A DNA stretch of 64,000 nt. Source: Allolobophora icterica. Taxonomy: Eukaryota; Annelida; Clitellata; Crassiclitellata; Lumbricidae. A program made the position numbers and the translations under genes. The stretch covers positions 72,204,779 through 72,268,778 of the forward strand of contig OY744604.1 in the NCBI GenBank assembly GCA_963556255.1, written 5' to 3'. This document shows, one piece after another, positions 20,611 through 64,000 of this stretch (positions within the stretch are counted from its first letter, which is position 1; every line of letters begins with the position of its first letter). The notes below the pieces were generated by a model, which was given only the letters and a program-made list of their open reading frames with translations, did not search any database and was not told the origin of the DNA.

Positions 20611-23600
20611 TTATACACTAGGACCCTCTCTGAACTTCATGAGTGCAATGTAGGCCCCTCTAAAGTCAGCGCATTTCACTCCAATAACCTGATTTGTGGT
20701 GCTGTCAAAGTGCAGGTAGTCAAACTTGGGCAGCTTTGATGTGGAGGGGAGGCAGACAGGAAATTTATTAAACTCGGAATCTAGAACCTCCAATCTGTGG
20801 CCCTTCTCGTAGATTAAAATCCTATCATAGGTATCACAGAAACTGACGCTTGATTCAACACCCAATGGAGATCTAAATACGCGTAGATATTGGCCATTGG
20901 CATCAACTTCAGTAAGCACTGTTTGGCATTGTGCATCAACAGAAGCAATTATAAAATCTCCACCTGCTTTTGGGAGCACCTTGTCCCCGCAGCTTAAAAC
21001 TTCTGTGACTGCGGGAAGAAGCAGCTTCTGCCGCAACACCCCGTTGTCACAGAACTCGTAGAGTGTGACCGTTTTCTGACCGGTTTCCTCACATAATATT
21101 ACTAAACTGCCTTCTCTGGTCACGCTCATGCCTGAGACAGATGCTGTGAACCCGGTAATCCATGATGATATGTTAAATTGATTATATGCATCTTTCTTGA
21201 TGCGTTGGACTGACACAGAACATAATTCCATGTTCAGCACATACACGCAGTTTGACACGTTGCAAGCTGCCATATCTGTGGCACGTATGCCTGGTAGTGG
21301 GATGACATCTTTCACCTTTGCCATATTATTTCGGTCGTAAACATGGATAACGAAGTCCAGTTTTCCTGGCGTTACCATCAGAAATATTTCATCTCTCAAC
21401 GTGGTCACTTTGTATACGAAGTATGGTAAGTGGACCTGCTGAACGATCTCCAGCTTAATCGACTCCGGTGCTGAAAAAGTTGACTTTATTCTAAATTATA
21501 CTGTGCAAAACTTTTTCTCAAAAGCCAACATAGATTTAAAACTAATGACAATTTACGAAATGAACATAATAGAAGGAAATTAATAACTGGGATTGTTCGA
21601 ATCAGGCTGAGAAACACCTACATGTACACTGCTAACTAATACCACTCTGCATAAGTCCAATGCCAGACTGCATTAATCGCACACAAGAGACGGCTGTTTA
21701 CAGTTTTCAGTAATGTTCTAGTATTCGCTGATGAAAACCTACCGTACACAATTGCCTTCAAGATGAGCATGGTGGTGGTGACGGTGGTTCCTGAGGTGTA
21801 AATGGTGGTGGTTTGTGGTGTTTGTGGTGGTGGTTTGTGGTGATAGTTTTGGTGTTGGAGGTGGTGATGAAAGAGTAAGAATTCATTGCAGATCTAATGA
21901 TGAACCCTTTTAAAGCTACCATAATGTGTCTATCATTTAAATATAATATGTTGCATGTGTGTGTTCAGGTATGCACACGGAAACTTCAAAACAGCTAACT
22001 TAATACCTGACAAAGGGCTTCGCGTTTGCCAGAATAAATGGCGTCAAGATTCAATAAGAACAACGAGTTTATCTGTAAGGCGAAATGCTCAGATAACTAA
22101 TTAAGAAGGTCTCCACTTGCGGACGCTCAAACACATACAGTTAAGAGTTTCAGTGCAACCGAGTTAAAATTATAAAGAGCATGCGCTTTCGGCAGAGCCT
22201 TTATGCCTATGAAACATGGACATTCAATAAAGGCTGAAAGAGCAGATTTGCACGTAAGAAAAATTGCTACAGAAGAACGCTACAATTAAGCTGGTTAAGA
22301 GGCCAAACAAATCGAAGTAAGATGATGCAAGTGACCATCCCGATCTCTTTACTCATGTCTGTTGGATTAATATCAAACAGAAAAAGATATGTGTGTGATG
22401 ATGAGAACTTCAGAAGTATGGAAGGCATATGTCAGCATAATTTATGAATACGGAAGACTTTCAGGTCCTCTTTTATAGCACGCATAAAATTAAGCGACTT
22501 TGTATCTTTAATGAACTAACCAGTCGCCTCTTCCAGCGTCCTATAGACTTCTTTGCGAAATAAGCTAGCGTCGATGATGTCGCTCCATTGCACGCAAACA
22601 TCACCCAGTCTGTTCATAACAAGATCTGCCTTTTCTTTCCACACGCTTTTGACCAGCTTCATACCTTTCACTTCCATAACTACTGCTTCAAAGAGGATGC
22701 TCTCAATTACCTCGATCGGTAGATCTTGCATCTACAAGAAAAGTTAAAAGATATCAAATCTGCTCAAATACGTCATTAGAAATTCTCAGCATGAAATCAA
22801 CCAAATGGCAAGATCGTCAAGACCCGTAAACACCACAACAATTGAAATAGAAGATTTCTCGAGCATCAACTTTGTTGACATTGTATTGTATTGTATTGTA
22901 TTTAAACATTTATAAAGCGCCTCTAGTAGGGTGAACCGTTCAGAGGCGCTCCCAGTGCGCAAGGCCGAGAGAAAAGAAATAAGTCTTGAGGAAAGCAAAA
23001 GAAGATGAGGGGTTACTTATTAAAATTTGAGAGCGAGTAGAAGGAGACAGTGTATTCCAGAGAGAGGGACCAATTGAGGCAAAAGATCGGGACTTCGCCA
23101 TAGCTGTTCTAGTACGAGGAACTGAGAGATCAAATCTGTTTGAGGAGCGAAGTGGACGATGCGAAGAGACAGAAAGAGGCCGGTGAATTACATCAATTAA
23201 ATATTTTGGGGCGAGACCCCGCTGTGTCTTTGACACCAGAATAAGGATTTTGAACTTAATACGTGCAGAGAGAGGAAGCCAGTGCAGTTTCTCAAACATG
23301 AAGGATGAAATGCGTGAGTAGCGTGGCAGACGGGCAATTAATCTCGCAGCTGCATTTAGGACTGACTGCAGAGGCATGAGACGGACCTTAGGAAGACCGA
23401 TTAGAAGCGAATTGCAGTAGTCAATTCTGGAGCAAATGAAAGCATGGACCAGCGTTGTGAAAACAGAGGAAGAGACAGATCGTCGAACAGCCCTGAGACG
23501 CCTTAAGTGGAAGTAGGAAACACGTGTGAGGTTAGAGATGTGATCTTTGAAGGAGAGAGAGCTATCAAGCGTAACACCTAGGTCACGTACACTTGATGAA

Positions 23601-25877
23601 AAGGAGTAGTGAGGGAAGATTTCCAACAGGAGGGCGAAATCAATCTTAAGCAACTGTTGAGGGGAGCCAAACCAAATGAACTGGGTTTTGGAGGCATTAA
23701 GACAGAGACGATTTGAGGACATCCAGGAATGGAGAGACTTAGATAGAGACTCGATACGCTCAACTAAGTGCAATTGAGATAAATGAGACCCATGGACAAA
23801 AGCTTGCACATCATCAGCAAAGATATGACCAGTAGCTCCCGAGAGTGGGAAAAGAGAAGGAATGTCAGCCGTGTAGAGAATAAAGAGTAAAGGACCAAGT
23901 ACAGAGCCTTGAGGAACGCCCAGCTTAATGTGAATCCATTTTGTTCTAGAGTCGCCCGATATAATCATTTGGGTTCGTTCAGACAGATATGATCGAAACC
24001 AGCAAAGAGGAAGGCCCTGCAACCCATATGAAGTCTCAAGACGCTGAAGGAGAATACTATGATCTACCATATCAAAGGCTGCAGAAACATCGAAAAGAGC
24101 CAAGAGGCTAAGTTCAGCCCTGTGAACAGCAGAGTAGATTTCAGAGAGGAGAGAGAGGAGAGCAGTCTCAGTAGAATGATGAGCCCTAAAGCCTGATTGA
24201 TTAGCAGGAAGGAGTCCAGATTGCTCAAGATAAGGGAGGAGCTGAAGAGAGACAAGACGTTCAAGAGTCTTGGATAGGAAAGATAAATTGGAGATGGGAC
24301 GGTAATTATTGCAGAGATTAGTATCAAGATTAGGCTTTTTTAGCGAAGGAAAGACCAGAGCACGCTTCTGCGATGGAGGAATACACCCTTCGGAAAGCGA
24401 TCTATTAAATAGATAAACAAGAAAGGGAGCAAGGTCATCTAAAATGTCACTAATAACAAAAGGGGGTAGCGGATCGAGTTCACATGATTTAAGATTAACA
24501 GACGTTAATACTAAACGAAGGTCGAACTCTGAGATAGGACGAAAACTATCGAAGACAGTGGATGTAGATGTGAAGGTCGGAGGAGGAGCATCAGCTGTCG
24601 AAGCACGAAGTCGGTCGATCTTTGTGGAAAGCATTTCCTGAAACTCATCTGCAGTGAAAGATGGAGCTTCGGTAGAACGAGATGATCGCCCAAGGAGACC
24701 CGAGACAGACGACCACAAGCGTCTTGGATTTTTTCGTTGCGCAAGACTAGCTTTGGCTAGACATGTTGAGGTAATAATCTTTAAAACGTGAAGACGAAAT
24801 AGACTCAGCATCATAGGACATCGTTTTAAATTCACAGTTGACGCTGGTCATGTGGCGTATCCAGAAGTCAACGAGGTGCTATAGTTACCCTAAACAGGCC
24901 GTATCGTACATATCTGACCAACTTTTTACTTGGAATTGGTGAGCAACATAAAGGCTTCTTCTTTTTTGCGATTTTTAACGTCATGAAGATTCATTCCCAT
25001 TATTTACGCTTTTATACAAATGTTTTAATTAAAATGGTGTCTTAGTGTAAAGTCTGCGTTCTTTAAAGTGCTGATAAAACTGGCTGTCTCGAGAAATAGG
25101 ATAGAAAGTGTCGTTCCATTAGCCACACTATTCAAGCATTTCATAAAGTCTGGAGTAAAGAAGATTTGCAATTTAAGACGACGTAGCTTACCGTTGCGTC
25201 ACTCAACGACATGAGTTTTGCACGTTTAGCATTCTCATCTCGTTGGAAATCCGCTACAAGAGAAATGAATTCAATTATTCTTAAAACAATTGTTGCATAG
25301 AATTCTAAACCACAATAGAGACAAGTAGGCCTAACTGTATTGTAGCATGATGAAAATTTAGCATAACCATGCACAGAGCTGATCGTCTCGTGTACCTGCG
25401 TCCATAGGCGTAGCTACATTGAGGCAAGAGGTGGCAGTTGCCTCCTCTTGGTTTTATAAAGTTAAAAATTTTCCTTGGGTTATAGCCCTGCACCTAGGTG
25501 TTGCCTCCTCTTGAACGGTGAATCCTGGCCCAAGAGAAGAAATTTAAGAAGACATCCCAAAAAAGGTCATCAAAAAACGTCAACACATTTTTTGTCAATA
25601 TTTTTTGCCTCCTCTTGAAATTAAGTCTGGCTACGCTCCTGCCTGCGTGTACGTTACCGAATTATATACAAACAAATGGAAACTGCTATAAAACCGGCTA
25701 CGTAGGTCTGACTAGCAATACCAAGCGTTCGGGAAAAGTGAGTGCTGAATGAGTCATTGAAACGAGAAACCACTTGAAAGTGAACTATTAAATACTTCCT
25801 TGTATTAACTTACAATTTGAGCCTTCATCTGTTTCGTCGTCATTGCCGGATTCAGGTGATGTTCGTTTCTTCGACAT
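20611..25877 (-). CDS. F-box-like / beta-propeller-like protein, unit 3
   Basis: Predicted four-exon gene of 398 residues: exons 25814-25877, 25192-25253, 22521-22731 and 20611-21470; phases 1, 0, 1. Exon 1 begins MSKKRTSPESGNDDETDE, exon 2 contains FQRDENAKRAKL, and exon 3 is F-box-like (MQDLPIEVIESILF, KLVKSVWKEKADLV). The last exon keeps the VYDRNNMAKVKDVIPLPG and ACNVSNCVYVLN blade, but from the middle onward it is the most divergent copy (ends LMKFREGPSV), as if from an older paralogue. A possible extra 48-nt exon (21743-21790, acceptor CAG, donor GTAGGT, phase 1 to 1) would add 16 residues. Intron 2 holds a CR1 LINE (22882-24758) and intron 1 a hAT element (25403-25641). CRE pair at 26101-26124. 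The function, a possible SCF substrate receptor, is inferred from architecture only. Confidence 0.7.
21743..21790 (-). other. Possible 48-nt cassette exon in unit 3
   Basis: CAG acceptor, 48 nt open in phase 1 (GTTVTTTMLILKAIVY), GTAGGT donor. In unit 4 the matching 48 nt are also open but in a different frame, and in unit 2 the acceptor AG is lost and the shifted frame has a stop. A real exon is possible but weakly supported. Confidence 0.3.
22882..24758 (-). mobile_element. CR1-type LINE with open reverse transcriptase frame
   Basis: Minus strand, 5' truncated, in intron 2 of the unit 3 gene. A frame running from the 5' junction to 22940 encodes about 600 residues of a jockey-superfamily reverse transcriptase. 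Landmarks in order: NYRPISNLSFLSKTLERLVS, QSGFRAHHSTETALLSLL, motif A LALFDVSAAFDMVDHSIL, motif B GVPQGSVLGPLLFILY, motif C FADDVQAF, SKTQFIWFG, DLGVTLDSSLSFKDH, and the tail LHWLPLSARIKFKIL. The endonuclease part is absent (5' truncation). The 3' end has the AGGCGCTTTATAAATG segment and an ACAATACAATACAAT tail. GACAT lies at both edges. The unbroken frame suggests a fairly recent insertion, after units 2 and 3 separated. Confidence 0.9.
25403..25641. mobile_element. Short hAT-like MITE, 239 bp
   Basis: Ends CATAGGCGTAGCTAC and (reversed) CAGGAGCGTAGCCAG; flanking 8-mers CCTGCGTC and CCTGCGTG differ by one base. Several copies of TTGCCTCCTCTTG lie inside. The empty site is seen in unit 1 near 4275 (CTGCGTGTACATT). 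It lies in intron 1 of the unit 3 gene. Confidence 0.75.
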
Positions 25878-43191: not shown

Positions 43192-43695
43192 CTAGCTATA
43201 CTTTACAAGAACCCATTTACCAACTGAAACCTCACTTGAATCGACCTGATTTTGTTTATTGGCAATCGGCAAGTGAATGTTACTTGGCTCTCTCAGTGAT
43301 AATTCGGGATGTCTTCTCATGAATGCATAATACCATTTCTTTCCAGCCATTCGAGTGTCCTGATTAAAATTATGCTTTAAATTATGGGCCTCAGCAAGGT
43401 CAAACGCCAACCGACGCAAATCATCTATGCGTAATCCAGAGAACATTGATTCCAGCTGCAAGCAATGTTCAACTAATTCCTTCTCTAAATCACTTGAGAG
43501 AGAACATGCATGGCCATGATACTTCACGTCGCCAATAGCAATTTTATTTTTTCCATTTGAATGTCTAGACAATGTTGCCTTCGGAATTCCATAGGTTCTG
43601 GTTGATTCTGATAGTCCCATATCTCCTCTTTGAACGGCTGATACTGCTCTTTCAATATCTTCGCCAGTCCATTCTTCATACACTCTTCTTGACAT
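43192..43695 (-). CDS. Pogo-type transposase N-terminus (psq HTH and CENP-B-type HTH)
   Basis: 167 codons. Residues 8-45 (EEWTGEDIERAVSAVQRGDM, YGIPKATLSRH) match the pipsqueak-type helix-turn-helix, and about residues 115-140 (GKKWYYAFMRRHPELSLREP) match the CENP-B/Tc5-type DNA-binding domain. Both are typical of pogo/Tigger/jerky transposases. The DDE catalytic domain is absent and the frame ends after about 30 unrelated residues (GKWVLVKYS). Likely a truncated transposase that may still bind DNA. Confidence 0.85.
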   Translation of the reverse strand: MSRRVYEEWTGEDIERAVSAVQRGDMGLSESTRTYGIPKATLSRHSNGKNKIAIGDVKYHGHACSLSSDLEKELVEHCLQLESMFSGLRIDDLRRLAFDLAEAHNLKHNFNQDTRMAGKKWYYAFMRRHPELSLREPSNIHLPIANKQNQVDSSEVSVGKWVLVKYS

Positions 43696-46115: not shown

Positions 46116-46853
46116 CCTACTTCTGATGAAATCCTCTTGATGGTAGACTGACACGTCTCTGGCGACCAGTTGCTCCGTCACCTGACCCCATCTTACCTGT
46201 ACTCTACCTTCCGTCTCTACAGAAGAAGTAACCGTTTTTTTCTAGTTAGCAATGTTAATATGTATAGTTAAGGCTGATTTTTTTTAAAGGGATAATTTGT
46301 CTTATCTTTAATTTTTCGTATTAAGTTTGTCTAGATTGTTTAGTTAAGGCTGACTTTTTGGTATTAAATTTGTCTATAGTGTATTGATTGTAATTTGCTT
46401 GGACTATTACGTAATTTTTCATCTTTAAGTTTGTTTAGATTGTTTAGTTAAGGCTGATTTTTTTTTATATGTGGTGATATATCTCATCTTTGATTTTTCG
46501 TATTAAGTTTGTTTAGATTGTTTAGTTAAGGCTGACTTTTTGGTATTAAATTTGTTTATAGTGTAGTGATTGTAATTTGCTTGGACTATTACGTTCTATA
46601 ATTCCCTTCGGTTCGGACTAGAATGACCGTATTGGCTAGATTAGTTTAAGTTCAGCCGACTCTGATGTAAATAGTATAGTATTTCGTTTTAAGACTAAAT
46701 CCTAATTGTTTTTCGTCCCTCCTCCTCCCCTTCTCCCTCCTCATTCTTTATTTCCTTTTCTCCTAATTTTCCATCTTTTCTAGTTAAGATTCGCTTGATA
46801 CTATTGTACTGCATTATTGGATCAGTCGCGAGCCGTGTGATTCTTATAGGTCG

Positions 46854-49800
46854 TTGAAGGACTTTAAACTGCCTACTGGCGATTTACTCTCCAGTGACTC
46901 GGACAATTGCACTGATGATGAACCGGAATTTTCAATTACCTGTACTAGACGAACTAAGGACCTTTGCCCCATTTGTTGTACAATTGACTGTTGCATCGTA
47001 TGTGAATGTATAATATGTTGCTGTCCCAAGTGTACCCTTTGTAGACTCCCTTTTCACCCCATGGTTGACGATGAACTCCAATTAGAGAGGGTTGGGTATA
47101 AGGAATTTGCTAAAGCCAATACCACTCTTCTCCAAAGTAGCCTTATAGGCCCACGTTTAGATATACTAACAAATGACCCCGATACCCGTCCTATATTGAG
47201 ATGCGCCGATATAGATCCCGATTGTAACTATTTAAATGATTTTACCCACGATAGCGCTTATTCCACCTCTTACTCACTTAACGAAGAATTTAAATCAACG
47301 GCACCTTCATTTTCTGTAATTCATGTCAATTGTAGAAGCCTCCTACCAAAATTAAATGAAATTAGAGACCTCCTAGAACTCCTACCTGTAACAATAATGG
47401 CATTGACCGAGACTTGGTTGGATGACAATCTTGTTGATCTTATTGTGGTGCCAGGATACCAGTTTGTCCATAAATCAAGAAATACAGTCAGAGGGGGAGG
47501 AGTAGGGTTCCTTATTAAAGAAGGGATATCCTTTGAATTATTGGAAAACCCAGGTCCTAGATCAGCACCCTTTTTAACATTCGAGGGTCTGTTTCTGCGG
47601 ATATCTCACAGAAAGGGTTCTACCACATTAGGTGTTATTTATAGACCACATGGCTTAAAAATTGACGAATTTTCAAGTGAAATTGATAACCTGCTTACCA
47701 GTATTATAAAAAAATCGAATGATATAATAATTGCAGGAGATTTTAATATAGACCTACTAAGAATAAGTGACCATAAGGGAACTGCCGGTTTCTATAACTG
47801 TATGATTTCTCACCATCTCCTACCGCTCATAACTAGGCCCACAAGAATAACCAGCCATAGCTCTACACTCATAGACAACATTTTCACAAATGCATGGCCC
47901 AAAGCTATTAACTCCTCTATCATTGTAGCTGACCTATCCGATCACTTACCAGTCACAGCCTGGTTCGACTATGGACTGCTCCAGCCTAAAAGACCTCCTT
48001 CTGAGAGCTATAGGCTCATCACAACTGAAAGGAAAACTGAATTCCTTCAGTCTGTCGCCCTCCTCAACTGGTCTCCGGTCCTTGAAGCCTGTGCTGAACA
48101 GGATACGAACAAGGCCTATGAGCAGGCTGTAATCTAGTCCCCCTCTTGTGGGGGGAAACAAGTTTCCTGGGGGGATTTTCCACCCCAACACGTGTCTACA
48201 TTACGATATTGCTGGAATCTGGGGGGAAACATCAATCCTGGGGGGGGAAATTTACCCCCCCAAAGACGTCTAGATTATTCACTGGCCTATGAGTTATTCT
48301 TACTAACGTACAAGAGAGCCTATGATGTATCCTTCCCCGTAATTACAACTAGTTCTAGATCTAAGACAGCCCCCAAGAAACCATGGATGACTCCAGGTCT
48401 CCTCAAATCCTGCAGAAAAAAAAATTACTGTATTTGAAATATCTAAAAAGCCCAAGCGAAATTAATAAAAAGCAATTTACAATTTATAGAAATAAATTCA
48501 AAGCACTTAGAATACAAGCTGAAAAGAATTATTACGCAGCCGAGTTCTGTATAAATAGCAATAACCTAAAAAAACTGGTCTCTGTTAAGAACCATTATTG
48601 GGAAGGGCGACACCCAGGACTCCAATATTGCTACTCTGAAAATAAATGGGGAAAAATTAACAGACCCCGAAACAATAGCAAACAAGTTTAACAACTACTT
48701 CACGGGCATTGCACAATCCTTGGCTAATAAGATTCCTAGTACCTCCAAATCCTTTGAAACATTTATGAATCCTTCCCAGGCAAGTTCCTTTGGTCTTAGT
48801 ACAACTTCCCCGGAAGAAATTTTGAGTTTGGGCCGCTCTCTTCGTTGCTCTCACAGCAAAGGAGTCGACGACATCGACCCAATTATAGCCCTTCCATCTC
48901 TGCCTAGTGTAGCTCTTCCTCTAGCAGAAATTATCAATTATTCTTCCTTTAGCTCGGGTGTCTTCCCTCAAGTGTTAAAAATTGCTAAGGTTGTCCCGGT
49001 GTTCAAGAAGGGTTCTAGAGAAGAAGTTTCCAACTACAGGCCTATCTCGGTTTTACCTTTCTTTTCAAAATTTTTCGAAAAGATCATGTATGAGCGTCTT
49101 AATACTTTTATTACTAAAGAAAATTTACTATTCCCCTCCCAACATGGTTTCCAGTCGGGGCATTCCTCCTACATGCCTCTACTTAGTATGCAAGATAAAA
49201 TTTCAAATGCCATAGAGAATAATGAATTTGCCCTAGGAATTTTCTTCGACTTAGCTAAAGCTTTCGACACTGTGAATCATAACATTTTATTAAATAAGCT
49301 AAATAAATATGGAATAAGAGGCACCCAATTAAAATGGTTCGCCAGTTATCTGAATAACCGCTCCCAAATTGTAAGTATTAATGGAATCCTCTCAGACCTG
49401 CGGGAGATAAAACATGGAGTCCCCCAAGGTTCGAACCTGGGTCCACTTCTCTTCCTAATCTATATCAACGACCTTCCTAATGTTTCTCCAAGTATGTTTT
49501 TTATTCTATTTGCCGATGATTCTAATGTGTTTTGTTCTCATGCCTCATTAGATTCACTATACCGCATAGTTAATACTGAGTTGGAATCCATAGCAGAATG
49601 GTTTCACTCCAATAAACTAACACTTAATTTAGATAAAACCAACTACATTCTTTTCAAGTCCCATAGGAAGACCTGTCCAGCTGAACCCCTTAAGCTTTAT
49701 ATTGATGGTACCTCAATTACTCAGGTGGTCTCTACTAGATTCCTGGGAGTGTATGTGGACCAAAACCTCAATTGGAAGGAACACATAAAGAATATCGCGA

Positions 49801-50342
49801 ATAAAATCGCGAAAAACCTGGGAATACTTTCTCGTGCTTCTAAATTAGTATCATCTAAGATCCGTGCTACCTTATACCACACCCTTATATATCCGTATCT
49901 CACTTATTGTAATGTTATTTGGGCCTCAACTTACAAATCAAGTCTAACAAGGTTAATAACCCTTCAAAAGCGAGCAATTAGGTACATAGCCAAACTCCCT
50001 TATGGGGCCCATACAGAGCAGGCCTTCTCCGAACATAGGCTCCTTAAAATTGACCAGATCAGAATTATGCAGATTGGAGAATTCATGTACCGTTTTGATC
50101 ACAAACTACTACCCCCTGTATACGATAACTATTTCTGCCGTACATTAGATCGCCACCCGTATCAGACAAGAAATTCCGGCCTATATCACCAACCATTTGC
50201 CCATACTAACACTCGTTTATTCTCTATTAGATTCACCGGGCCAGCCGTTTGGAATCAGATACCCCTAAACGTCCGACAATTGCCTAGTCTGTGGTCTTTT
50301 AAAAGAAAAATGCGTTCGTTCCTGCTTGAACATCGTATATAG
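46854..50342 (+). pseudogene. LINE endonuclease/reverse transcriptase ORF, broken
   Basis: Frame order is 46854-48137, then 48192-48437 after the MITE, a shifted piece 48383-48691, then 48720-50342. The N-terminus has a Cys-rich cluster (CPICCTIDCCIVCECIICCC). The AP-endonuclease follows: VIHVNCRSLLPKL, ALTETWLDD, IIAGDFNIDLL, SSTLIDNIFTN, SDHLPVTAW. RT: NYRPISVLPFFSKFFEK, FDLAKAFDTVNHNILL (motif A), HGVPQGSNLGPLLFLIYIND (motif B), FADDSNVF (motif C), TRFLGVYVDQNLNWKEH. Breaks: a MITE (48123-48284) brings in a TAG at 48135-48137; one-base shifts lie near the A-runs at 48416-48425 and 48568-48574, and these two shifts cancel. The homopolymer shifts could be sequencing errors. Otherwise the protein is well preserved, so this is a young copy. 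Confidence 0.88.
48123..48284. mobile_element. MITE inside the LINE ORF, 162 bp
   Basis: Ends CAGGCTGTAATCTAG and (reversed) CAGTGAATAATCTAG, with G-runs inside; duplicated GCCTATGAG (48114-48122 and 48285-48293; 8-10 bp depending on where the ends are set). It shifts the downstream frame by 171 bp, a multiple of three, so only the internal stop breaks the ORF. hAT-like. Confidence 0.88.
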
Positions 50343-53769: not shown

Positions 53770-54478
53770 ATAGGGCCTATCTCAGCTCACAGGTAAGCTA
53801 CGATGACAAATGAAGTGTCAATTGTAACATTTCCAAGGTCAAGCAATCGATTTATCATAGTGTCAATAGTGTTGTAATACTACTTTCCAAGATGACGGCC
53901 AATATGGCCGCTTAAACACAAAAATATGTATATCTCAGCTCATAGATAAACTACAATGACAAATGAAGTCTCAATTGTAACATTTTCAAGTAGAGAATCG
54001 ACTTATCATAGGCCTAGTGGTAATAGTGTGCAAATGCCATTGTCCAAGATGGCGCCCACTATGACCGCCAAAACATAACAATATGTATGCCTCAGCTCAT
54101 AGGTAAGCTGCAATAACAAATGAAGTGTCCATTGTAGCATTCCCAAGGTCAGGAAATCGATCTATCGTAGTGGCAATAGTGTGGAATACTATTTTCCAAA
54201 ATGGCGGCAAAAATGGCCGCCAGACACAACAATATGTATGTCTCAGCTCATAAGTAAGCTACAATGACAAATGAAGTGTCAATTGTAACATATTCAAGGT
54301 CAAGGAATCGATTTATCATAGTGGTAATAGTGTGGAAATACTACTTTCCGAGATGGCGGCTAATATGGCCCCCAAAGCACAAAAATGTGTATATTTCAGC
54401 AGGTAGGTAGCCTACAATGACAAATGAAGTATCAATTGTAACATTTCCAAGGTCAGAGAATCAAATTATCGTAGTGTA
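53770..54478. repeat. Minisatellite, about 152-bp period, five units
   Basis: Landmark CTCAGCTCATAGGTAAGCTA recurs near 53780, 53933, 54089, 54241 and 54394, followed each time by TGACAAATGAAGTGTCAATT. Most units end with AAGATGGCGGC/ATATGGCCGCC, a YY1-like pair. Confidence 0.9.
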
Positions 54479-54960: not shown

Positions 54961-56097
54961 TGTCCAATTATAGAATTAACCAATACAATTTGTCATGATT
55001 TCATCAAAATAATGGGGAATATTTAAGAGCTCAATTTATTGAAGAAGTAAAAATGGCCACGTATTTCGCGTTGATTGTTGATTCAGCACCAGATGTCAGT
55101 ATTTTTTTACTAAAATCATTAAAGCAAATAACTTCACATTCCTTGAAAATAGCTTCTATATAACTTAAGACGTAAGTAGTGTATAGACTGGGCATTGAAA
55201 GACAATAGATTGATGGACAATAGGGTGCGCTCAAGCATGACCGTTCCGCTAGCAGCGCTCTGCTATAGGCTGTCCGAGGAACGGCGCTCTTCTATTGGCT
55301 GACGCTCTCTGCCTGCCCAAATTGTTTAATGCTTTGCACGCTAGCCTATTTGATTGACAGGCCTACATATACTTACATACAAGCATATGCACACATATAC
55401 ATAAACATATACAATTAAATGGCTCATATTGTTTAGCCCTAGGTCATAAACCTTTTAATGTATAAATCAACAGGTGGTAATAAATAACTCTAACAGTCTT
55501 TATGCCAATATCATATATCAAAATTTTAAATTCTATTAACATTTGCACATAATGTTTAAAAGCATATTCTTTTACAAATATCACAAAGTCTTCTCGCTTT
55601 TAATATTTCTGTTACACACATTATTTGGCCTTCCCTCTTTGCCCAGCTTGTACACATGTAGAAACATACATATATATTAATATACACACATCAATAAGCA
55701 TAATATAAGAATATGCATACATTTATATTTACCCAATCATATGATTATACATATTCTGTTAGACTCGTTTTATAAATTTCTAAATAGTATACATATGTGT
55801 ATATGCAAGGAGATGTGTGTAGGTATTATGAATATACAACACATACATGCATATAACTATAAATTTCTATAGGTGTTTATATATGTATGGTAATCATAAT
55901 GATAATCTCCAAACTTCTAAAGCGCCACGCGAAGGTCAAGCGCAGGACACCAATCATTTCACAAGCGTTACATCAAATCAGATGCTGTTTCCAGAGAATA
56001 GTCCAAAAGAAGTCCGAGTCCAGTTTCCAGAAGGTCAAACCAAATCAGAGGGAGTTTTCAGAGAGTAGTCCAAAAGAGGTGTATGTATGTATGTATG

Positions 56098-56663: not shown

Positions 56664-56700
56664 TATAAAACGAGACGGTTCACACAACTTTAGTCATTCT
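56664..56700 (+). promoter_or_regulatory. Core promoter of the polymerase gene
   Basis: TATAAAA at 56664-56670 and TTTAGTCATTCT ending at 56700. The TCATTC initiator-like motif starts 30 bp after the start of the TATA box and 32 bp before the ATG. The same layout precedes the ATPase gene. Confidence 0.7.
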
Positions 56701-56725: not shown

Positions 56726-57511
56726 ATGGATGAGTCCAACAACCGTGATTTGATCGTCATCGAAGATCAACAGATGTCTGGTATGTACATATTATAAATT
56801 TAATAGAATACGCTTATATATTATAAATTTAATAGTATATGCTTTTATATTACATTATCATTCGTCTTTAGCAATCTCCATAATAATTTTTAATATTTTA
56901 ATATTTAACTGTTATACAATATTCTTATAACCATTTCTAAAGTTTATACCATTATTTTCTTATATTAATTTTAGTAATGGACCATTGGCACGTGGATATC
57001 TCTGACGCTGAATTTATTCAGAGTGTTGTACATTTTGACAACGCTCAACCATGTAAGTATATCATTCCATTATATGTATATAGGCCTATTAATATCATAC
57101 ATATATATATATATATATAATTCTTTAAAATATGCAGCATCATACATCCTTAGTTTTCTTTAAATATTAACTTGATATAACATTTTTATGTATACCTCGT
57201 TCTTATGCATATCATATCTAAAATATAAACCACAAACTTGTATTATATTTTAGCTGCAACAGATTGGTGCATTGAAACGACAGACAGTCAGTTGATGTCA
57301 TGCTTGGACAAAATGGAAATGGATATTGGCAATCAAAGTAATATATATGTTATATATTTAAAAGTATGTCTAATATATTTAAGACCATTTACATTATTAC
57401 AATATCATACATCTTCAGCATTTGCTAGAGTTATATATGTCTAATATATTTAAGACCATTTACATTATTACAATATCATACATCTTCATCATTTGCTAGA
57501 GTTATATTGTC

Positions 57512-57552
<41 letters not shown>

Positions 57553-57875
57553 ACTTCATCATTTGCTAGAGTTATATTGTCATGTATGTGTGTGTGTATA
57601 TATATATATATATCTCTTCATCATTTGCTAGAGTTATATTGTCATATATATATATATATCATTTTACGGATATATATATATATATAATTTTAATAAACAT
57701 TTATATTTACCATCAGATGATTCTGGTGATGGCTATGAGGTTGAGATGACTGACACAAACTTATTGGAGGCTGTTCAGATGATTGAGTATACAAATCCGC
57801 AAAATGGTAAGTATATATATATATTTATAACCATTTGAGTAAAATAATTTGTTTACTATCTTTTGCTTTATATAC

Positions 57876-57912
<37 letters not shown>

Positions 57913-58617
57913 ACCATTTGAACTTTTAAAAAGTTGATTTCTAACATTCGATTTATATATTTTCATTTTATTTAATCATCATTTAACATATAAGTTTTCA
58001 TAAGTATTCATTTAATGTCCTTTAGCATATTAATACATTATTAAATATACATCACGGGTATTTATATTTCTTAGTGCAGAATCAACAGAGTGAGGCTGAA
58101 CCAATCGACGACAATCATTGGAACACTATGGGAAATGAAGAACTATTGCAGCACGTTCAAGACTTTGAATTATCGGAAGAAAGAGGAAAAGAAGCACGTC
58201 GTCTCCAAAGGGGGAAAGAACTTGGTTAGAAACACACTTTAAAATTGTGAAGAATAATATTAATTGATTAATTATATACATGATAGTATTAGATTAAGTC
58301 AATTTATATAATTCTACACGATTCGTTTAAATTCTTAAGCGAGTGATTGAGTGAGTGAGTGTATGTGTGTGTGTGTTTGTGAATATGTATGTGTGTATAT
58401 GTATGTGTATGTGGATGCTAATGGTGTTTATGAAGTTGTCATAATATGTGTATACAAACAGCTTAAATCCAAACCGAAATTGATGCATGTGATTTCATCT
58501 GATTTGTCTTTATTTGATTTTGATTGTATGTACTGTAGTAAAGAAGCGGAGGGCAGACCAAATCGAGCCGTCAACCTCTGCACCCAAAAGGCAATGTAAG
58601 TTAACGTCAGAACTATA

Positions 58618-58669
<52 letters not shown>

Positions 58670-58875
58670 GCTCGTCATGATGTTTAAATTTGCATATATG
58701 TATGTGTATGTGCGTATGTTTGTGTGTGTGTGTAGGTCTGTGTAGGTGTCCCATTTTAGCGGGACTTGGCCCTTAGGGACATACTTTTATAACACTAAAC
58801 TGATAACCGTTGTTTTCTATCACTGTTAATCTGCAGTTTGTGTGTTGTAATAAAAACGGATTTGATTTGATTTGA

Positions 58876-58925
<50 letters not shown>

Positions 58926-59449
58926 CGCGTGTGAATGAGTGTATGAAGGAGCTATATTATACATATATTATCAACTTAAATCCAATCTAATTTGTTACAA
59001 TTCTGAAACATGTGGAATGATTTAAACAATATTTCCGAATTGTGTTGTTTTAGATTTTGATAGCTATTGTCGAAAATGCAGCGCGTATAAACGATCAAAA
59101 CTCACAGCCGATGGGTTGTGTGAAATATGCGGTAACCGTAAAGTCTGCAGCAGATGTGGCCAACATAGACAGGCGCGTTTCTTTGAAGATGGCAAAGACT
59201 TTTGCTCGACCTGTGAGAGAAAGGAGACATCCCCACAACTTCAGACTTCAATTCACAACACGTTTTCCGAACAGAACCTGTCAACAGATTCAAACATTCT
59301 GGATGTTGGATTGGCCATTCGTGCACTGCAAGACGATATCATACAAAGTCTGGAGAGAGGTTTATCAGAACAAGGGTATGTTAAACACATTTACATTATT
59401 CATTTGAAACTTTTACATATCCTAAAAATTTTCTATGTATGTATGTATG

Positions 59450-59497
<48 letters not shown>

Positions 59498-59690
59498 TAA
59501 ACCAACAACTTTAATCATCTCTATAATTTACTATAGTTATATGTCACTATATGATTTTACATATTTATTCGCTAAGCGTGACATGGTGCTTGGTATCATT
59601 ACATGCCTGTTGCCACCTACTGAATGTTTTGTGACAAATTTTCTTACATGTTGGCTGCTATGGCATATCATTTTCATATGGTTATGACTG

Positions 59691-59774
<84 letters not shown>

Positions 59775-62700
59775 TTACATGTCTGACGCCACCTACCGAA
59801 TGTTGTGTGAAAAATTTTCTTACATGGCAAATCATTTTCATATGGCTATGACTGCTATATATATATATATCATTACATGTCTGGCGCCACCTACTGAATG
59901 TTGTGTGACAAATTTTCTAACACATTGACTGCTATGACATATCCTTTTCACCACAGCATGGCTGGCGCCACCTACTGAATGTTGTGTGACATATTTTCTA
60001 ACACATTGACTGCTATGACATATCCTTTTCACCACAGCATGGCTGGCGCCACCTACTGAATGTTGTGTGACATATTTTCTAACACATTGACTGCTATGAC
60101 ATATCCTTTTCACCACAGCATGGCTGGCGTCACCTACTCAATGTTGCGAGACAAATTTTCTTGCATATTGTCTGCTATGTCAAATACTATTCAGATAGGT
60201 AATTATGTCTGCTAATATACATATTATGCTAACACACATATAACATATCTTACTTTTAGCGCAATGAAGTGGTTCTTGGCTGTAGACGTGCAGTTCGTCC
60301 GAGAAAATCCGGATGGAATGGCTACGACAACGGCATATCTCAGATCCGATCCTGTGATTCTTCTCAATCCAACGCAGATGGCAGCTCATATGGAGGATAG
60401 CATAAGTCGCCTAAACACACTTGTTGAATCCTTTACTTCTGAAGGTTCTGGATGGAGCGTGCATAACATTGGTAATGTAACATTACACTCAGCCACATAC
60501 GATCCCATTGGTGGATCATCATATATACAAACCCCTAGGTGGATTTCTCTAAAGAAAGCAACGGTCAATATTGTCAACAGCGACAATTACTGTTTCCTCT
60601 ACTCAGTGCTGGCACATTCACATTGTGTGAAGGTTCATGCTGAACGTGTGAATCACTACACAGAGTTTTTAAATGAAATAAATACGCAAAACCTCTCATT
60701 CCCCCTAGATATTGCTCAAATATCAGTATTTGAAGAGAACAACTCTGACTATTCAATAAACATTATATATCCCAATTCCGATGACAAAACCTTTGTTCCA
60801 CTGTATGCATCACCTCACCATAATAGGAGGTATGTAGTAAATTTGATGCTCTTAAGTGATGGTGAAAGAAGGCATTATATTTTAATACGAAGCCTTTCCA
60901 GACTTTTGGCCTCAAGAAATTCAACCCATCAAAAGACTTATCCATGCAATTTCTGTCTACATTGTTTCTCAACAGAGGACAGACTGAACGCACACAAACC
61001 TGAATGTGCGAGTCATGGGCTGCAAAATGTTCGTTATCCGCAAGCCCCAAATAATGTGCTATCCTTTACAAATCGGCAGCATGAAATGCAGGTTCCTTTT
61101 GCCATCTATGCCGATTTCGAGTGTTTTTTGGATAAATCAAAAAAAAAAGCTGGAAATTCGACAACTTTTTTGGATAACCATATACCCAGCGGATTCTGCT
61201 GTTTGACTGTATCAGCTTTCACTCAGTATAATGATGAGGAACCATATTTATATTCTGGGCCTAATGTAATGGATGCTTTCTTTGTACATTTGAAGAGTGA
61301 GCAAGTAAGGATAAACAACATCCTATCCAAGAACGAAAGAATGAAAGGCATGTCCAAACTACAGCTTCAAAATTACAATGAATGTCAAAATTGTCCCTCT
61401 TGTAACATTCTTTTGTCCCCTCAAATTAAAGTCAGACACCACTGTCACATAACTGGTGACTTCATTTCTGCCCTCTGCACCAAATGCAACCTGCAAATGA
61501 AGTTTAAAAAAAGATCCTTGGGCAAAAATGAAGGAAATTATTTGATTCCCATAGTTTTCCACAACTTGAAGGGTTACGACTCCCACATTATTTTAAAACA
61601 TTTAACCCGCTTTTTCGCACCACAAGACGTAAACGTCATAGCAAACAATATGGAGAAATATCTATCGTTTGAAATTGATGGTTTACGTTTTGTGGATTCA
61701 TTGCAATTTTTAAATTGTAGTTTGGACACCTTGGTTAAGAATATGTCCAAAGATGGAAGCGCAAAATTTGTTCATATGCGGAGGCTGTTTCCAAATGATC
61801 AACAGTTTAATCTTGTTCTTAAGAAAGGTATTTACCCATATGAATACATGCACTCGATCCAGAGAATGTCTGAGACCAGTTTACCATCCAAAGAGGATTT
61901 TTTCAGTCATCTTTCGGATGAGGGCATAAGCGATGATGACTATGCCCATGCTCAAGACGTCTGGCTAGCATTTCAAATGGCCACCATGCAAAATTACCAT
62001 GACATCTATTTAAAAACAGATGTCATACTTCTAGCAGACGTCTTTGAGGAATTCCGTAAGATGGCTCTAAATTATTACAAATTGGATCCCCTACATTACT
62101 ATTCCAGCCCCGGCTTAAGTTTTGATGCCTGCCTAAGAATGACCAACATTTCTTTGGAGTTATTAACAGACCCAGACCAATATCTATTCGTTGAAAAGGG
62201 CATGCGAGGGGGTGTTAGCATGATAAGCAATAGATATGCAAAGTCAAACAATCCATATCTAGCTCAAGGATATGATGAAAATGCCCAAAAGTCCTATATC
62301 ATGTATCTTGATTGCAATAATCTGTATGGCTATGCCATGAGCGAACCGCTGCCCACAGGTAAATTTCGGTTCCTAGATCCAGATGAGCTTGAAGATATCG
62401 ATTTTCGCTCGAAATCGGCAGATGATGGCATAGGGTACATTATGGAAGTGGATATTGAATATCCACCACATCTCCACGACTCGCATAACGATTACCCTCT
62501 TGCACCTGAAAAGATGGCTGTTACAGCTAACATGCTCTCGCCATATGCTCAAAATTTAGCTAACATGTTTGAAATTAATATTAATAATAAGACTGAAAAG
62601 TTGATTCCAAATTTCTACAAGAAATCGAATTACGTTGTTCATTACAGAAATTTACAATTTTATCTGCAAATGGGACTGCAACTAACTAAAATACATAAAG

Positions 62701-63578
62701 TACTGATATTTGAGCAGTCTAGGTGGTTGAAACCCTACATAGACTTTAATACTGCAAAACGTCAGTTGGCAACCACAACATTTGAAAAGGATTTATTCAA
62801 GCTTATGAATAATTCTATTTACGGGAAAACGATGCAAAACAATAGGAAGCATCTGAATGTGAAAATTGTTACCAATGAGAGGTCAGCAAAACGGTTTATT
62901 GCGAGACCAACCTTTCAGGCATTTAACATTGTGAATGAGGATGTAACAATTGTTAAACTGGTCAAAACAGATGTATATTTAAACAAGCCGATTTACGTTG
63001 GTATGTCAATACTTGACATTTCTAAACTACACATGTATAGATTTCACTATAATCACATTGTCAAATCGTACGGTGAAAGAGTAAAACTGCTTTTCACAGA
63101 TACAGACAGCTTGTGTTATAACATACAAACAGAAGATGTGTATGCAGATATGAAAATTAATCTACAGCACTATGACACATCAGACTATCCAAAAGATCAT
63201 CCTTTATACTCTCGCAATAATGCTAAAGTGCTTGGCAAATTTAAGGATGAATCAAATGGCATAGTGCCACATGAATTTATAGGGCTGAAATCAAAAATGT
63301 ACAGCCTCCTGTACCCCAATGAATACGAAAAGAAAACCGCCAAAGGCGTTAAGAGATCACACGTCGCCAAGTCTATAAGACACAGTCAATATAGGGATTG
63401 CCTTCTAAATGAAGTATCCACTAATGCAAAATTTTGCGTTATACGCAGTGTGAAACATCAGCTTCATACAACACAAATAGATAAGCTGGCTCTTTCACCG
63501 TACGATGACAAGCGCTATCTAATAAACAGTTGTGATTCGTATGCTTACGGACACTTTAGAATCGTCAATGATATTTAA
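56726..63578 (+). CDS. Family B DNA polymerase of a Polinton/Maverick-like element
   Basis: Predicted eight exons: 56726-56780, 56975-57052, 57254-57337, 57717-57806, 58075-58224, 58539-58595, 59054-59375, 60260-63578; 1384 residues. Six introns are phase 1, the last phase 2; all have GT/AG. Residues 1-170 are acidic. Residues about 175-226 form a Cys-rich region (YCRKC, CEICG, CSRCGQH, FCSTC), probably zinc-binding. Exon 8 carries a second Cys/His patch (CNFCLHCF, near residue 507), exonuclease motifs YADFECF (about 562), HNLKGYDSH (about 715) and DIYLKTD (about 861), then polymerase motif A YLDCNNLYG (about 960), motif B KLMNNSIYGK (about 1124) and motif C FTDTDSL (about 1223). This is the protein-primed family B type that replicates Polintons and related viruses. 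All catalytic signatures are present, so the last exon is not decayed. Introns hold (TA)n arrays and a LINE 3' end. The splicing model is inference; the exon 8 frame alone (start 60264) is a 1104-residue alternative. Confidence 0.85.
57400..57660. repeat. Tandem repeat in intron 3 of the polymerase gene
   Basis: Four copies of TTCATCATTTGCTAGAGTTA followed by TATTGTCATATAT and (TA)n/(TG)n runs. Confidence 0.85.
58735..58877 (+). mobile_element. LINE 3' UTR fragment in intron 6
   Basis: A hairpin (GTCCC...GGGAC around AGCGGGACTTGGCCC) followed by AATAAAAACGGATTTGATTTG. The same layout closes the LINE at 50520-50668 (AGCGGGGTCCACGGCCC inside a hairpin, then AATAAAAGATTTGATTTTG). A severely 5'-truncated insertion of that family or a relative, followed by a (TG)n array (58878-58925). 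Confidence 0.8.
59585..60180. repeat. Tandem repeat in intron 7 of the polymerase gene
   Basis: Unit with TGGCGCCACCTACTGAATG and GTTGTGTGACA recurs near 59610, 59780, 59880, 59960, 60041 and 60121. The last three copies have an 81-bp period; the first ones are separated by (TA)n arrays (59693-59771). Minus-strand repeat frames here are artefacts. Confidence 0.9.
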
Positions 63579-63876
63579 ATATTTGCATTTTCTTATGTTT
63601 GGTGTAGAATTTTGATTGTTTGTTATACAATTTGTTTATGTTCACTTTAGTATTTTGAACGATGTTTAAATATATTTGAAGATTGTAAATAAATTGATTT
63701 ATCGTGATGTTTTTTTTAAATGGTAAATTCGTGCATTAAAAACTTTGTAGGAAATAGCTGTACATAAACTGTGCAAGGTTGAATGTTATTGTTTAATGAC
63801 ATTCAGTCACAGATTGTACATAAATTGGTTTATCATGCTATAATGTATATTATATTATTGTGTGGATCATTTTGAA
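63579..63876 (+). terminator. Polymerase 3' UTR with poly(A) signal
   Basis: AATAAA at 63688-63693, 110 bp after the stop. An imperfect direct repeat (GATTGTAAATAAATTGATTTATC near 63681 and GATTGTACATAAATTGGTTTATC near 63812) lies in this spacer. Confidence 0.6.
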
Positions 63877-63912
63877 TATATAAATCTAAAACCTACCTTC
63901 GCTTTGTCATTC
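63877..63912 (+). promoter_or_regulatory. Core promoter of the ATPase gene
   Basis: TATATAAA at 63877-63884 and TTTGTCATTCT with TCATTC starting at 63907, 30 bp after the start of the TATA box; ATG at 63919. Confidence 0.65.
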
Positions 63913-63918
63913 TCTAAT

Positions 63919-64000
63919 ATGGATCCTACGTGGCAACATCCATTTTCGGCTATTGTAAGTGGACCATCTGGATGCGGTAAAACACAGTTTACCCTTAAGT
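63919..64000 (+). CDS. Packaging-type ATPase, N-terminus only
   Basis: The first 27 codons start MDPTWQHPFSAIVSG and contain a Walker A motif GPSGCGKT at residues 15-22, then QFTLK, cut by the window edge. The HPF..IV.GP.GCGKT start is the usual N-terminus of the FtsK/HerA-type (A32-like) genome-packaging ATPases of Polintons and adintoviruses. These pump DNA into capsids. The place right after the family B polymerase fits. The rest of the gene, including Walker B, cannot be checked. Confidence 0.8.
   Translation, partial: MDPTWQHPFSAIVSGPSGCGKTQFTLK

What the first reader, a model, noticed from the sequence alone, without database searches (positions are those of the whole stretch)
56726..63578. 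Polinton-type polymerase gene apparently split by seven introns
Eight exons can be joined with correct signals; six introns are phase 1 and exon 1-6 lengths stay in register. The long last exon holds all catalytic motifs. An intron-rich N-terminal part on a Polinton-like polymerase is unexpected and could reflect capture of host exons or long residence under host splicing.
Basis: partly seen in the sequence, partly recalled or inferred. Interest (0 to 1): 0.8.

Follow-up and report, generated by a model that had tools for sequence, protein, structure and literature searches.

The report
Spliced polymerase gene of a Polinton
A virus-like jumping element in an animal-like genome carries a DNA polymerase gene whose front end is cut into short pieces by introns, and the sister copies that were read carry introns there too, so the introns seem to travel with the element, which is unexpected for this kind of element.

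Summary
Eight exons with seven GT-AG introns (six phase 1, the last phase 2) keep one frame from 56726 to 63578. The gene is the protein-primed DNA polymerase of a complete Polinton: TIRs, 6-bp target duplication, and ATPase, integrase and adenovirus-type protease downstream. Exon 7 is not a captured host exon: it carries the first helix of the polymerase's terminal-protein domain, which most relatives encode without interruption. Nor are the introns an accident of this copy: the host genome has 42 matches to exon 8 (window included), and in 32 of 32 copies read (window included) intron 7 ends at the same base. A TATA box 54-62 nt before a short first exon was located in 10 copies, window included. 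Exons 2-5 each encode one copy of a short tryptophan/leucine repeat. Other copies carry one, two or four such repeats within a single exon, so introns 2-4 look particular to this copy; not all copies were read that far. No RNA evidence was available. Intact vertebrate Mavericks are reported intronless (PMC8097293). New variant of a known kind.

The parts
55169..55174 (.). target-site duplication GACGTA (left copy; the right copy lies outside the window, L067:6033-6038)
   Evidence: read from the flanks printed
55175..55492 (.). left terminal inverted repeat, starts AGTAGTGTATAG; 96.9% identical to the right one over 323 bp (the alignment includes 5 bases of flank)
56664..56699 (+). core promoter: TATAAAA 56664 and initiator TCATTC 56694; TATA to ATG 62 nt
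56726..56780 (+). exon 1 (55 nt, outgoing phase 1)
   Evidence: first exons of 9 other copies
56781..56974 (+). intron 1 (phase 1; phase-1 donor also in 8 of 9 other copies with a located exon 1)
56975..57052 (+). exon 2, one W-motif repeat (78 nt, phases 1-1)
57053..57253 (+). intron 2 (not seen in the other copies read)
57254..57337 (+). exon 3, one repeat (84 nt, phases 1-1); donor GTAATA weak
57338..57716 (+). intron 3 (not seen in the other copies read); 71-bp tandem repeats and (TA)n inside
57717..57806 (+). exon 4, one repeat (90 nt, phases 1-1)
57807..58074 (+). intron 4 (not seen in the other copies read)
58075..58224 (+). exon 5, last W-motif repeat plus charged tail (150 nt, phases 1-1)
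   Evidence: score 65 against paralog A's repeat exon, 0 of 1000 shuffles
58225..58538 (+). intron 5 (shared with paralogs)
58539..58595 (+). exon 6, basic linker with EPSTSA (57 nt, phases 1-1)
58596..59053 (+). intron 6 (shared with paralogs; absent in P0087)
59054..59375 (+). exon 7, cysteine-rich module plus first strand and helix of the terminal-protein domain (322 nt, phases 1-2)
59376..60259 (+). intron 7 (phase 2; same acceptor base in 32 of 32 copies read); 81-bp minisatellite inside
60260..63578 (+). exon 8, rest of terminal-protein domain, vOTU-like, exonuclease and palm regions
   Evidence: the vOTU and palm labels rest on PMC11071308 and recalled motifs
63688..63693 (+). AATAAA
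63877..63912 (+). TATA box and TCATTC initiator of the next gene; GTCATTCT shared with the exon 1 promoter
63919..64000 (+). start of the packaging ATPase gene (204 aa in all, continues beyond the window)

Best explanation
[quoted passage not shown] The host's RNA polymerase II starts at a TATA/initiator promoter just before exon 1, and the spliceosome removes seven introns to give one polypeptide of 1384 residues (transcription and splicing are inferred). Exons 1-6 encode an N-terminal extension with four copies of a short tryptophan/leucine motif. Exon 7 encodes a cysteine-rich module and the first helix of the terminal-protein (TP) domain. Exon 8 encodes the rest of TP, a vOTU-like region, exonuclease and palm. 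Introns 1, 5, 6 and 7 belong to the element family and are copied with it at DNA level. The repeat number in the extension changes between copies. In this copy the repeats are separated by introns 2-4, most likely through tandem duplication of an exon together with its intron; this last step is inferred and is the weakest.
Against: No transcript was seen. Exons 1-5 have no convincing match in the homologs' N-termini: the repeat pattern is in 0 of 93, and of the exons tested against 77 of them only exon 3 passed its shuffles, which I set aside because those relatives are redundant. Exon 1 has no sequence match, only position, phase and promoter. Borders of exons 3 and 4 are not unique. Paralog A lacks a GT at the exon 1 donor and paralog B has a stop in its repeat exon. 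4 of 30 loci do not show the usual GG|GTATG or GG|GTAAG at the end of exon 7. Evidence for exon+intron duplication is thin: introns 1-2 and 1-3 exceed all 100 shuffles, the other four pairs tested do not.
Confidence: 0.88

Rival explanations
1. The polymerase is translated from exon 8 alone, starting at the ATG at 60264; exons 1-7 are a chance chain or a separate short gene.
For: An in-frame ATG lies at 60264, and metagenome relative P0002 is called from the same methionine. The exon 1-5 peptides have no convincing outside match.
Against: That product would lack the first helix of the TP domain, which fits the profile in 73 of 76 relatives with 30 or more upstream residues. Exon 7 is present in 30 of 30 loci with an acceptor at the same base. 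No TATA/Inr pair lies between 57955 and 63876, but one at exon 1.
Confidence: 0.05
2. The N-terminal exons were captured from a host gene.
For: Short symmetric phase 1 exons are the kind that exon shuffling moves (established knowledge).
Against: Exon 7 is polymerase sequence. The repeats occur in other copies of the element. The genome search with the four-repeat exon gave 11 places: 5 lie within 2 kb of a polymerase copy listed; the other 6 were not checked for a neighbour.
Confidence: 0.03
3. The gene is real and spliced, but introns 2-4 are the ancestral state and were lost in the other copies (for example through a cDNA), rather than arising in this lineage.
For: One loss event could remove three neighbouring introns from the nearest paralog L052, which still has a single-repeat exon before its four-repeat exon. 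P0087 shows that copies without introns 6 and 7 exist.
Against: Several repeats in one exon are found in three visibly different groups of copies (no tree was built), which would need several losses.
Confidence: 0.3

Closest known systems
Vertebrate Mavericks/Polintons (PMC8097293, passages read)
   Same: Protein-primed PolB, integrase, ATPase, adenovirus-type protease, TIRs, 6-bp target duplication
   Different: [quoted passage not shown] its 134 intact elements are described as having intronless ORFs, so this is partly a matter of selection. Here the polymerase has seven introns
Polinton pPolB architecture TP-vOTU-EXO-PALM (PMC11071308, abstract and passages read)
   Same: TP domain resembling the LF/PAD of Y-family polymerases, followed by vOTU region, exonuclease and palm
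   Different: Here an intron cuts through the TP domain, and a cysteine-rich module plus a W-motif repeat array precede it; the word intron does not occur in that paper's text
Adenovirus E2B transcription unit (PMC7851563, passages read; the short first coding exon of Ad polymerase and pTP is recalled)
   Same: Protein-primed replication proteins of a Polinton relative, expressed through host splicing
   Different: Adenovirus TP is a separate protein and no repeat exon array is known to me; homology of the splicing patterns was not tested
Other Polinton family in the same genome (L012, L015, L017-L019)
   Same: Same polymerase type, about 40% identical
   Different: The TP helix runs into the polymerase in one open frame, without intron 7, in 5 of the 6 loci compared

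Membership tests
Polinton/Maverick | protein-primed family B polymerase | tested here: met
   [not shown]
Polinton/Maverick | retroviral-type (rve) integrase | tested here: met
   L067:629-1675, PF00665 E 1.5e-12 plus chromodomain
Polinton/Maverick | A32-like packaging ATPase | tested here: met
   L022:5156-5767, PF04665 E 3.2e-5, over cut-off; PF00910 scores slightly better
Polinton/Maverick | adenovirus-type cysteine protease | tested here: met
   L067:4240-4728, PF00770 E 3.3e-6, over cut-off
[quoted passage not shown]
   L067:2918-4273, PF21738 E 0.045, below cut-off; PDB search gave only unrelated repeat proteins at E 0.023 or worse
[quoted passage not shown]
   323-bp inverted match at 96.9%; GACGTA on both sides
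Polinton/Maverick | intronless genes (reported for intact vertebrate elements; not a formal criterion) | tested here: not met
   polymerase with 7 introns; intron 7 in 32 of 32 copies read
Spliceosomal intron | GT-AG ends and frame kept after removal | tested here: met
   7 of 7
Spliceosomal intron | removal from RNA | not testable with these tools
   no transcript data
Introner (intron-making transposon) | introns 2-4 similar to many other introns of the genome | not tested
   the genome search with intron 2 did not complete

The most novel reading that the evidence does not exclude
A mobile, virus-like element family keeps spliceosomal introns as a lasting part of its replication gene, one of them inside the terminal-protein domain, and has gained new introns at repeat borders in this copy, so that the number of motifs and the presence of a whole TP domain could be set by alternative splicing in the host.
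Probability: 0.3. Interest if true: 0.75.

Novelty: new variant of a known kind. Interest (0 to 1): 0.62.

Why it matters
Polintons are usually treated as compact, intronless, virus-like elements. A multi-copy family whose polymerase cannot be made whole without the host spliceosome bears on where these elements are expressed (nucleus), how they cross between hosts, and why gene callers and unspliced searches would miss the N-terminal part of the polymerase. Related copies that differ in repeat number and in introns 2-4 within one genome also offer a direct system for watching intron gain or loss. Adenoviruses, which PMC11071308 derives from Polintons, also splice their polymerase message (recalled), so the finding raises the testable question of whether that habit is older than adenoviruses.

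Tried and rejected
Host-exon capture and splicing by residence were considered and rejected (see rivals).

Scans of viral contigs with exon 8, P0022, P0020, P0005 and a DNA pattern gave no relatives. The alignment found 2 distant loci at 38%. The scan of prokaryote genome contigs gave 9 loci at 27-47%, none close. Searches with exon 7 alone and with P0087 residues 1-175 found nothing new. A gapped comparison of the exon 7 tail with 88 relatives was not significant (40 of 200 shuffles reach it), and the cysteine-rich head was only weakly so (6 of 200 against 77 relatives; individually 8 of 77 at p 0.005 or less, one of them without a CxxC). The ungapped register test replaced the tail test. Exon 3 exceeded 200 of 200 shuffles, but the relatives there are redundant, so I do not count it.

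Five relatives without the TP helix (P0005, P0011, P0019, P0020, P0022) have R or S at the third residue before K, as a read-through of an AG|N acceptor would give.

A first splice model with strict site thresholds missed exons 5 and 6. The genome search did not complete for a busy machine; the same request, or another one, was made later, and four searches were answered. (rve) only showed that integrase domains are abundant in this genome. The paper on adintoviruses was not held. A PDB sequence search with exon 8 gave nothing below E 0.38.
Full report
What is there. The stretch 56726-63578 holds eight exons that keep one frame over seven GT-AG introns; outgoing phases are 1,1,1,1,1,1,2, and the sum is 4155 nt, 1384 residues plus stop. 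Introns are poorer in G+C (0.16-0.32) than exons (0.38-0.53). A splice and codon model trained on exon 8 gives the region a best chain of 48.2 bits; 0 of 200 dinucleotide shuffles reach it (maximum 24.6). 7 of 106 real stretches of the window do; all 7 overlap long open frames on the same strand, 3 of them mainly the reverse-transcriptase/endonuclease frames. The model returns exons 1, 2 and 5 and the donor of exon 7 exactly, and exon 6 only at the lowest intron penalty. It gives other inner borders for exons 3 and 4 and a shorter or split exon 7, and at penalties 3 and 5 extra exons inside intron 7. The splice-site frequencies in it are recalled.

Promoter. On the + strand of the 64 kb, a TATA box followed at promoter distance by an initiator TCAKTY gives 13 pattern hits. 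Ten lie in (TA)n runs inside introns 3 and 4; the other three are 56664, 62 nt before the exon 1 ATG, and the overlapping pair 63877/63879 before the ATPase ATG at 63919. Shuffles give 0.73 hits on average, maximum 3 in 30 runs, so the telling point is the place of the hits more than their number. Both gene starts share GTCATTCT, which has no other + strand place in the window (three on the - strand). The ATPase promoter with GTCATTCT recurs in the two paralogs fetched first.

The introns belong to a family. The window is part of an unnamed 1.118-Gb genome. Exon 8 has 42 matches there, the window included, 41 others at 67-73% identity; 2 of the 42 have a stop inside (a lower bound). Loci were given for 30 of the 42 (window among them). 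In 30 of 30 exon 7 lies upstream, and the acceptor AG stands exactly 4 nt before the codon that precedes KW; the gap between exon 7 and that base is about 293-898 nt. 26 of 30 show GG|GTATG or GG|GTAAG at the end of exon 7; L036 has GTATAT, L040 GTTTG, L030 GCAAG, and in L049 the end was not covered. Two further copies of the 42, A (L020) and B (L021), were read from exon 1 on: exon 1 of 22 nt, a repeat exon of 210 or 216 nt, exon 6 of 69 nt, exon 7 of 325 or 331 nt, exon 8; phases 1,1,1,2 as in the window; TATA to ATG 62 nt as in the window. A lacks a GT at the exon 1 donor; B has a stop in the repeat exon. In four more copies (L053/L024, L055, L029, L036) exon 6 is bounded by an AG two bases before its first whole codon and, where shown, a GTGAG donor after one base. 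Between A and B, dN/dS is 0.21 in exon 8, 0.37 in exon 7 and 0.46 in the repeat exon (few changes). In 10 copies where a TATA box and ATG were recognised (window, A, B, L053, L054, L055, L063-L066), TATA to ATG is 54-62 nt, an initiator-like TCAKTH lies 29-30 nt after TATA in 8 of 10, and the first strong donor is at phase 1 in 9 of 10. The first exons of L063-L066 had been picked with phase 1 required; one search repeated the test without that. I did not establish an exon 1 for L052/L056 to L062.

The repeat array. Exons 2, 3 and 4 share W/Y-x5-D-x2-[LF]-[LIM]-x2-[VL]-x2-[FMI]-[DE]; exon 5 has it with one residue fewer (read by eye). As peptides the four are alike beyond all 1000 shuffles; as DNA only exons 2-3 are marginal (7 of 200). 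In other copies the same motif stands in one exon: four repeats in L052/L056, in L057 (a stop inside), and in L059, L060 (a stop inside) and L061 behind a run of aspartates; L062 covers the same four-repeat query in one frame, but my script read its neighbour L060 again instead of it. Three or more stand in L058 before a run of N; two in L053, L055, L063, L064 and L065, and also in L029 and L036; one in A and B; L066 shows one in a frame cut short. L052, upstream of the nearest paralog (73%), has a further single-repeat exon before its four-repeat exon, so single-repeat exons are not unique to the window. In L054 no repeat was found. Introns 2-4 were seen only in the window copy, but separate short exons are hard to find by the search used (the window's own were not listed), so 'only here' holds for the copies read, not for all 42. 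Introns 1-2 and 1-3 of the window are alike beyond all 100 dinucleotide shuffles; the four other pairs tested are not. That fits, without proving, duplication of an exon with its intron. One-to-one descent of exons 2-4 from the first three repeats of L052 could not be shown; exon 5 clearly matches its fourth.

The element. Inverted repeats of 323 bp (96.9%) lie at window 55170-55492 and L067:5715-6037. The TIRs start AGTAGTG, with GACGTA on both outer sides, so the element is about 15.8 kb. Downstream of the polymerase are an A32-like ATPase, an rve integrase with chromodomain, a double jelly-roll match below cut-off, an adenovirus-type protease and a PC4-like protein on the other strand; each match lies in one uninterrupted frame. 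Polymerases of a second Polinton family of the same genome, about 40% identical, read through the intron 7 site in 5 of 6 loci compared; the sixth, L014, has a stop just before the match.

How it works. Shown: gene structure, its conservation in sister copies, the domain cut by intron 7, the element around it. Inferred: transcription from about 56694, splicing by the host, priming by the TP domain, cleavage by the vOTU-like region (proposed for Polintons in PMC11071308), and a docking role of the W-motif repeats, for which I have no evidence beyond their repetition and the kept protein likeness. Exons 2-6 are all multiples of three, so each can be skipped without loss of frame; whether that happens is unknown.

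Known or new. [quoted passage not shown] its intact elements are described as having intronless ORFs, so an intron-bearing element might have been classed otherwise. I found no report of a spliced Polinton polymerase in the listings. Inside papers I looked for introns in PMC12721341, PMC12220804, PMC8097293, PMC11071308, PMC3671162 and PMC8363768 (passages) and read Polinton passages of PMC5718144. Subscription papers and most preprints are missing from that library, so this is weak evidence of absence.

Noticed in passing
46788-50342 (+): Two neighbouring frames with endonuclease (PF03372) and reverse transcriptase (PF00078): a non-LTR retrotransposon next to the Polinton.
   Followed up: no
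22943-24847 (-): A second reverse transcriptase frame of 635 aa (PF00078).
   Followed up: no
43195-43695 (-): Frame with Psq and Tc5-type DNA-binding domains (PF05225, PF03221), perhaps a DNA transposon remnant.
   Followed up: no
53778-54476 and L067:6302-6499: A 153-bp tandem repeat lies on both sides of the element, in opposite orientation, outside the TIRs and the target duplication.
   Followed up: partly
59876-60193: About four copies of an 81-bp minisatellite inside intron 7; the consensus unit ends CACCACAG, like a 3' splice site.
   Followed up: no
63877-63912; L020:9161; L021 (reversed) 9426: The ATPase gene has its own TATA/GTCATTCT promoter, seen in three copies: perhaps an element-wide core promoter.
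   Followed up: partly
L067:4827-5378 (-): The element carries a gene with a PC4 (p15) transcriptional coactivator domain, E 7.5e-20.
   Followed up: no
L058 (C1:91399320) and L056 (C1:91420352): The four-repeat exon occurs twice about 21 kb apart, 99% identical as protein over 86 residues, one copy beside a run of N: a local duplication or an assembly effect.
   Followed up: no
L059, L060, L061: Runs of aspartate of different lengths precede the repeats in the same open frame.
   Followed up: no
places of PF03175: 52 polymerase places are listed in this genome, most with open frames of about 1250 aa and no stop; the six compared belong to a second Polinton family, and five of them read through the intron 7 site.
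   Followed up: partly
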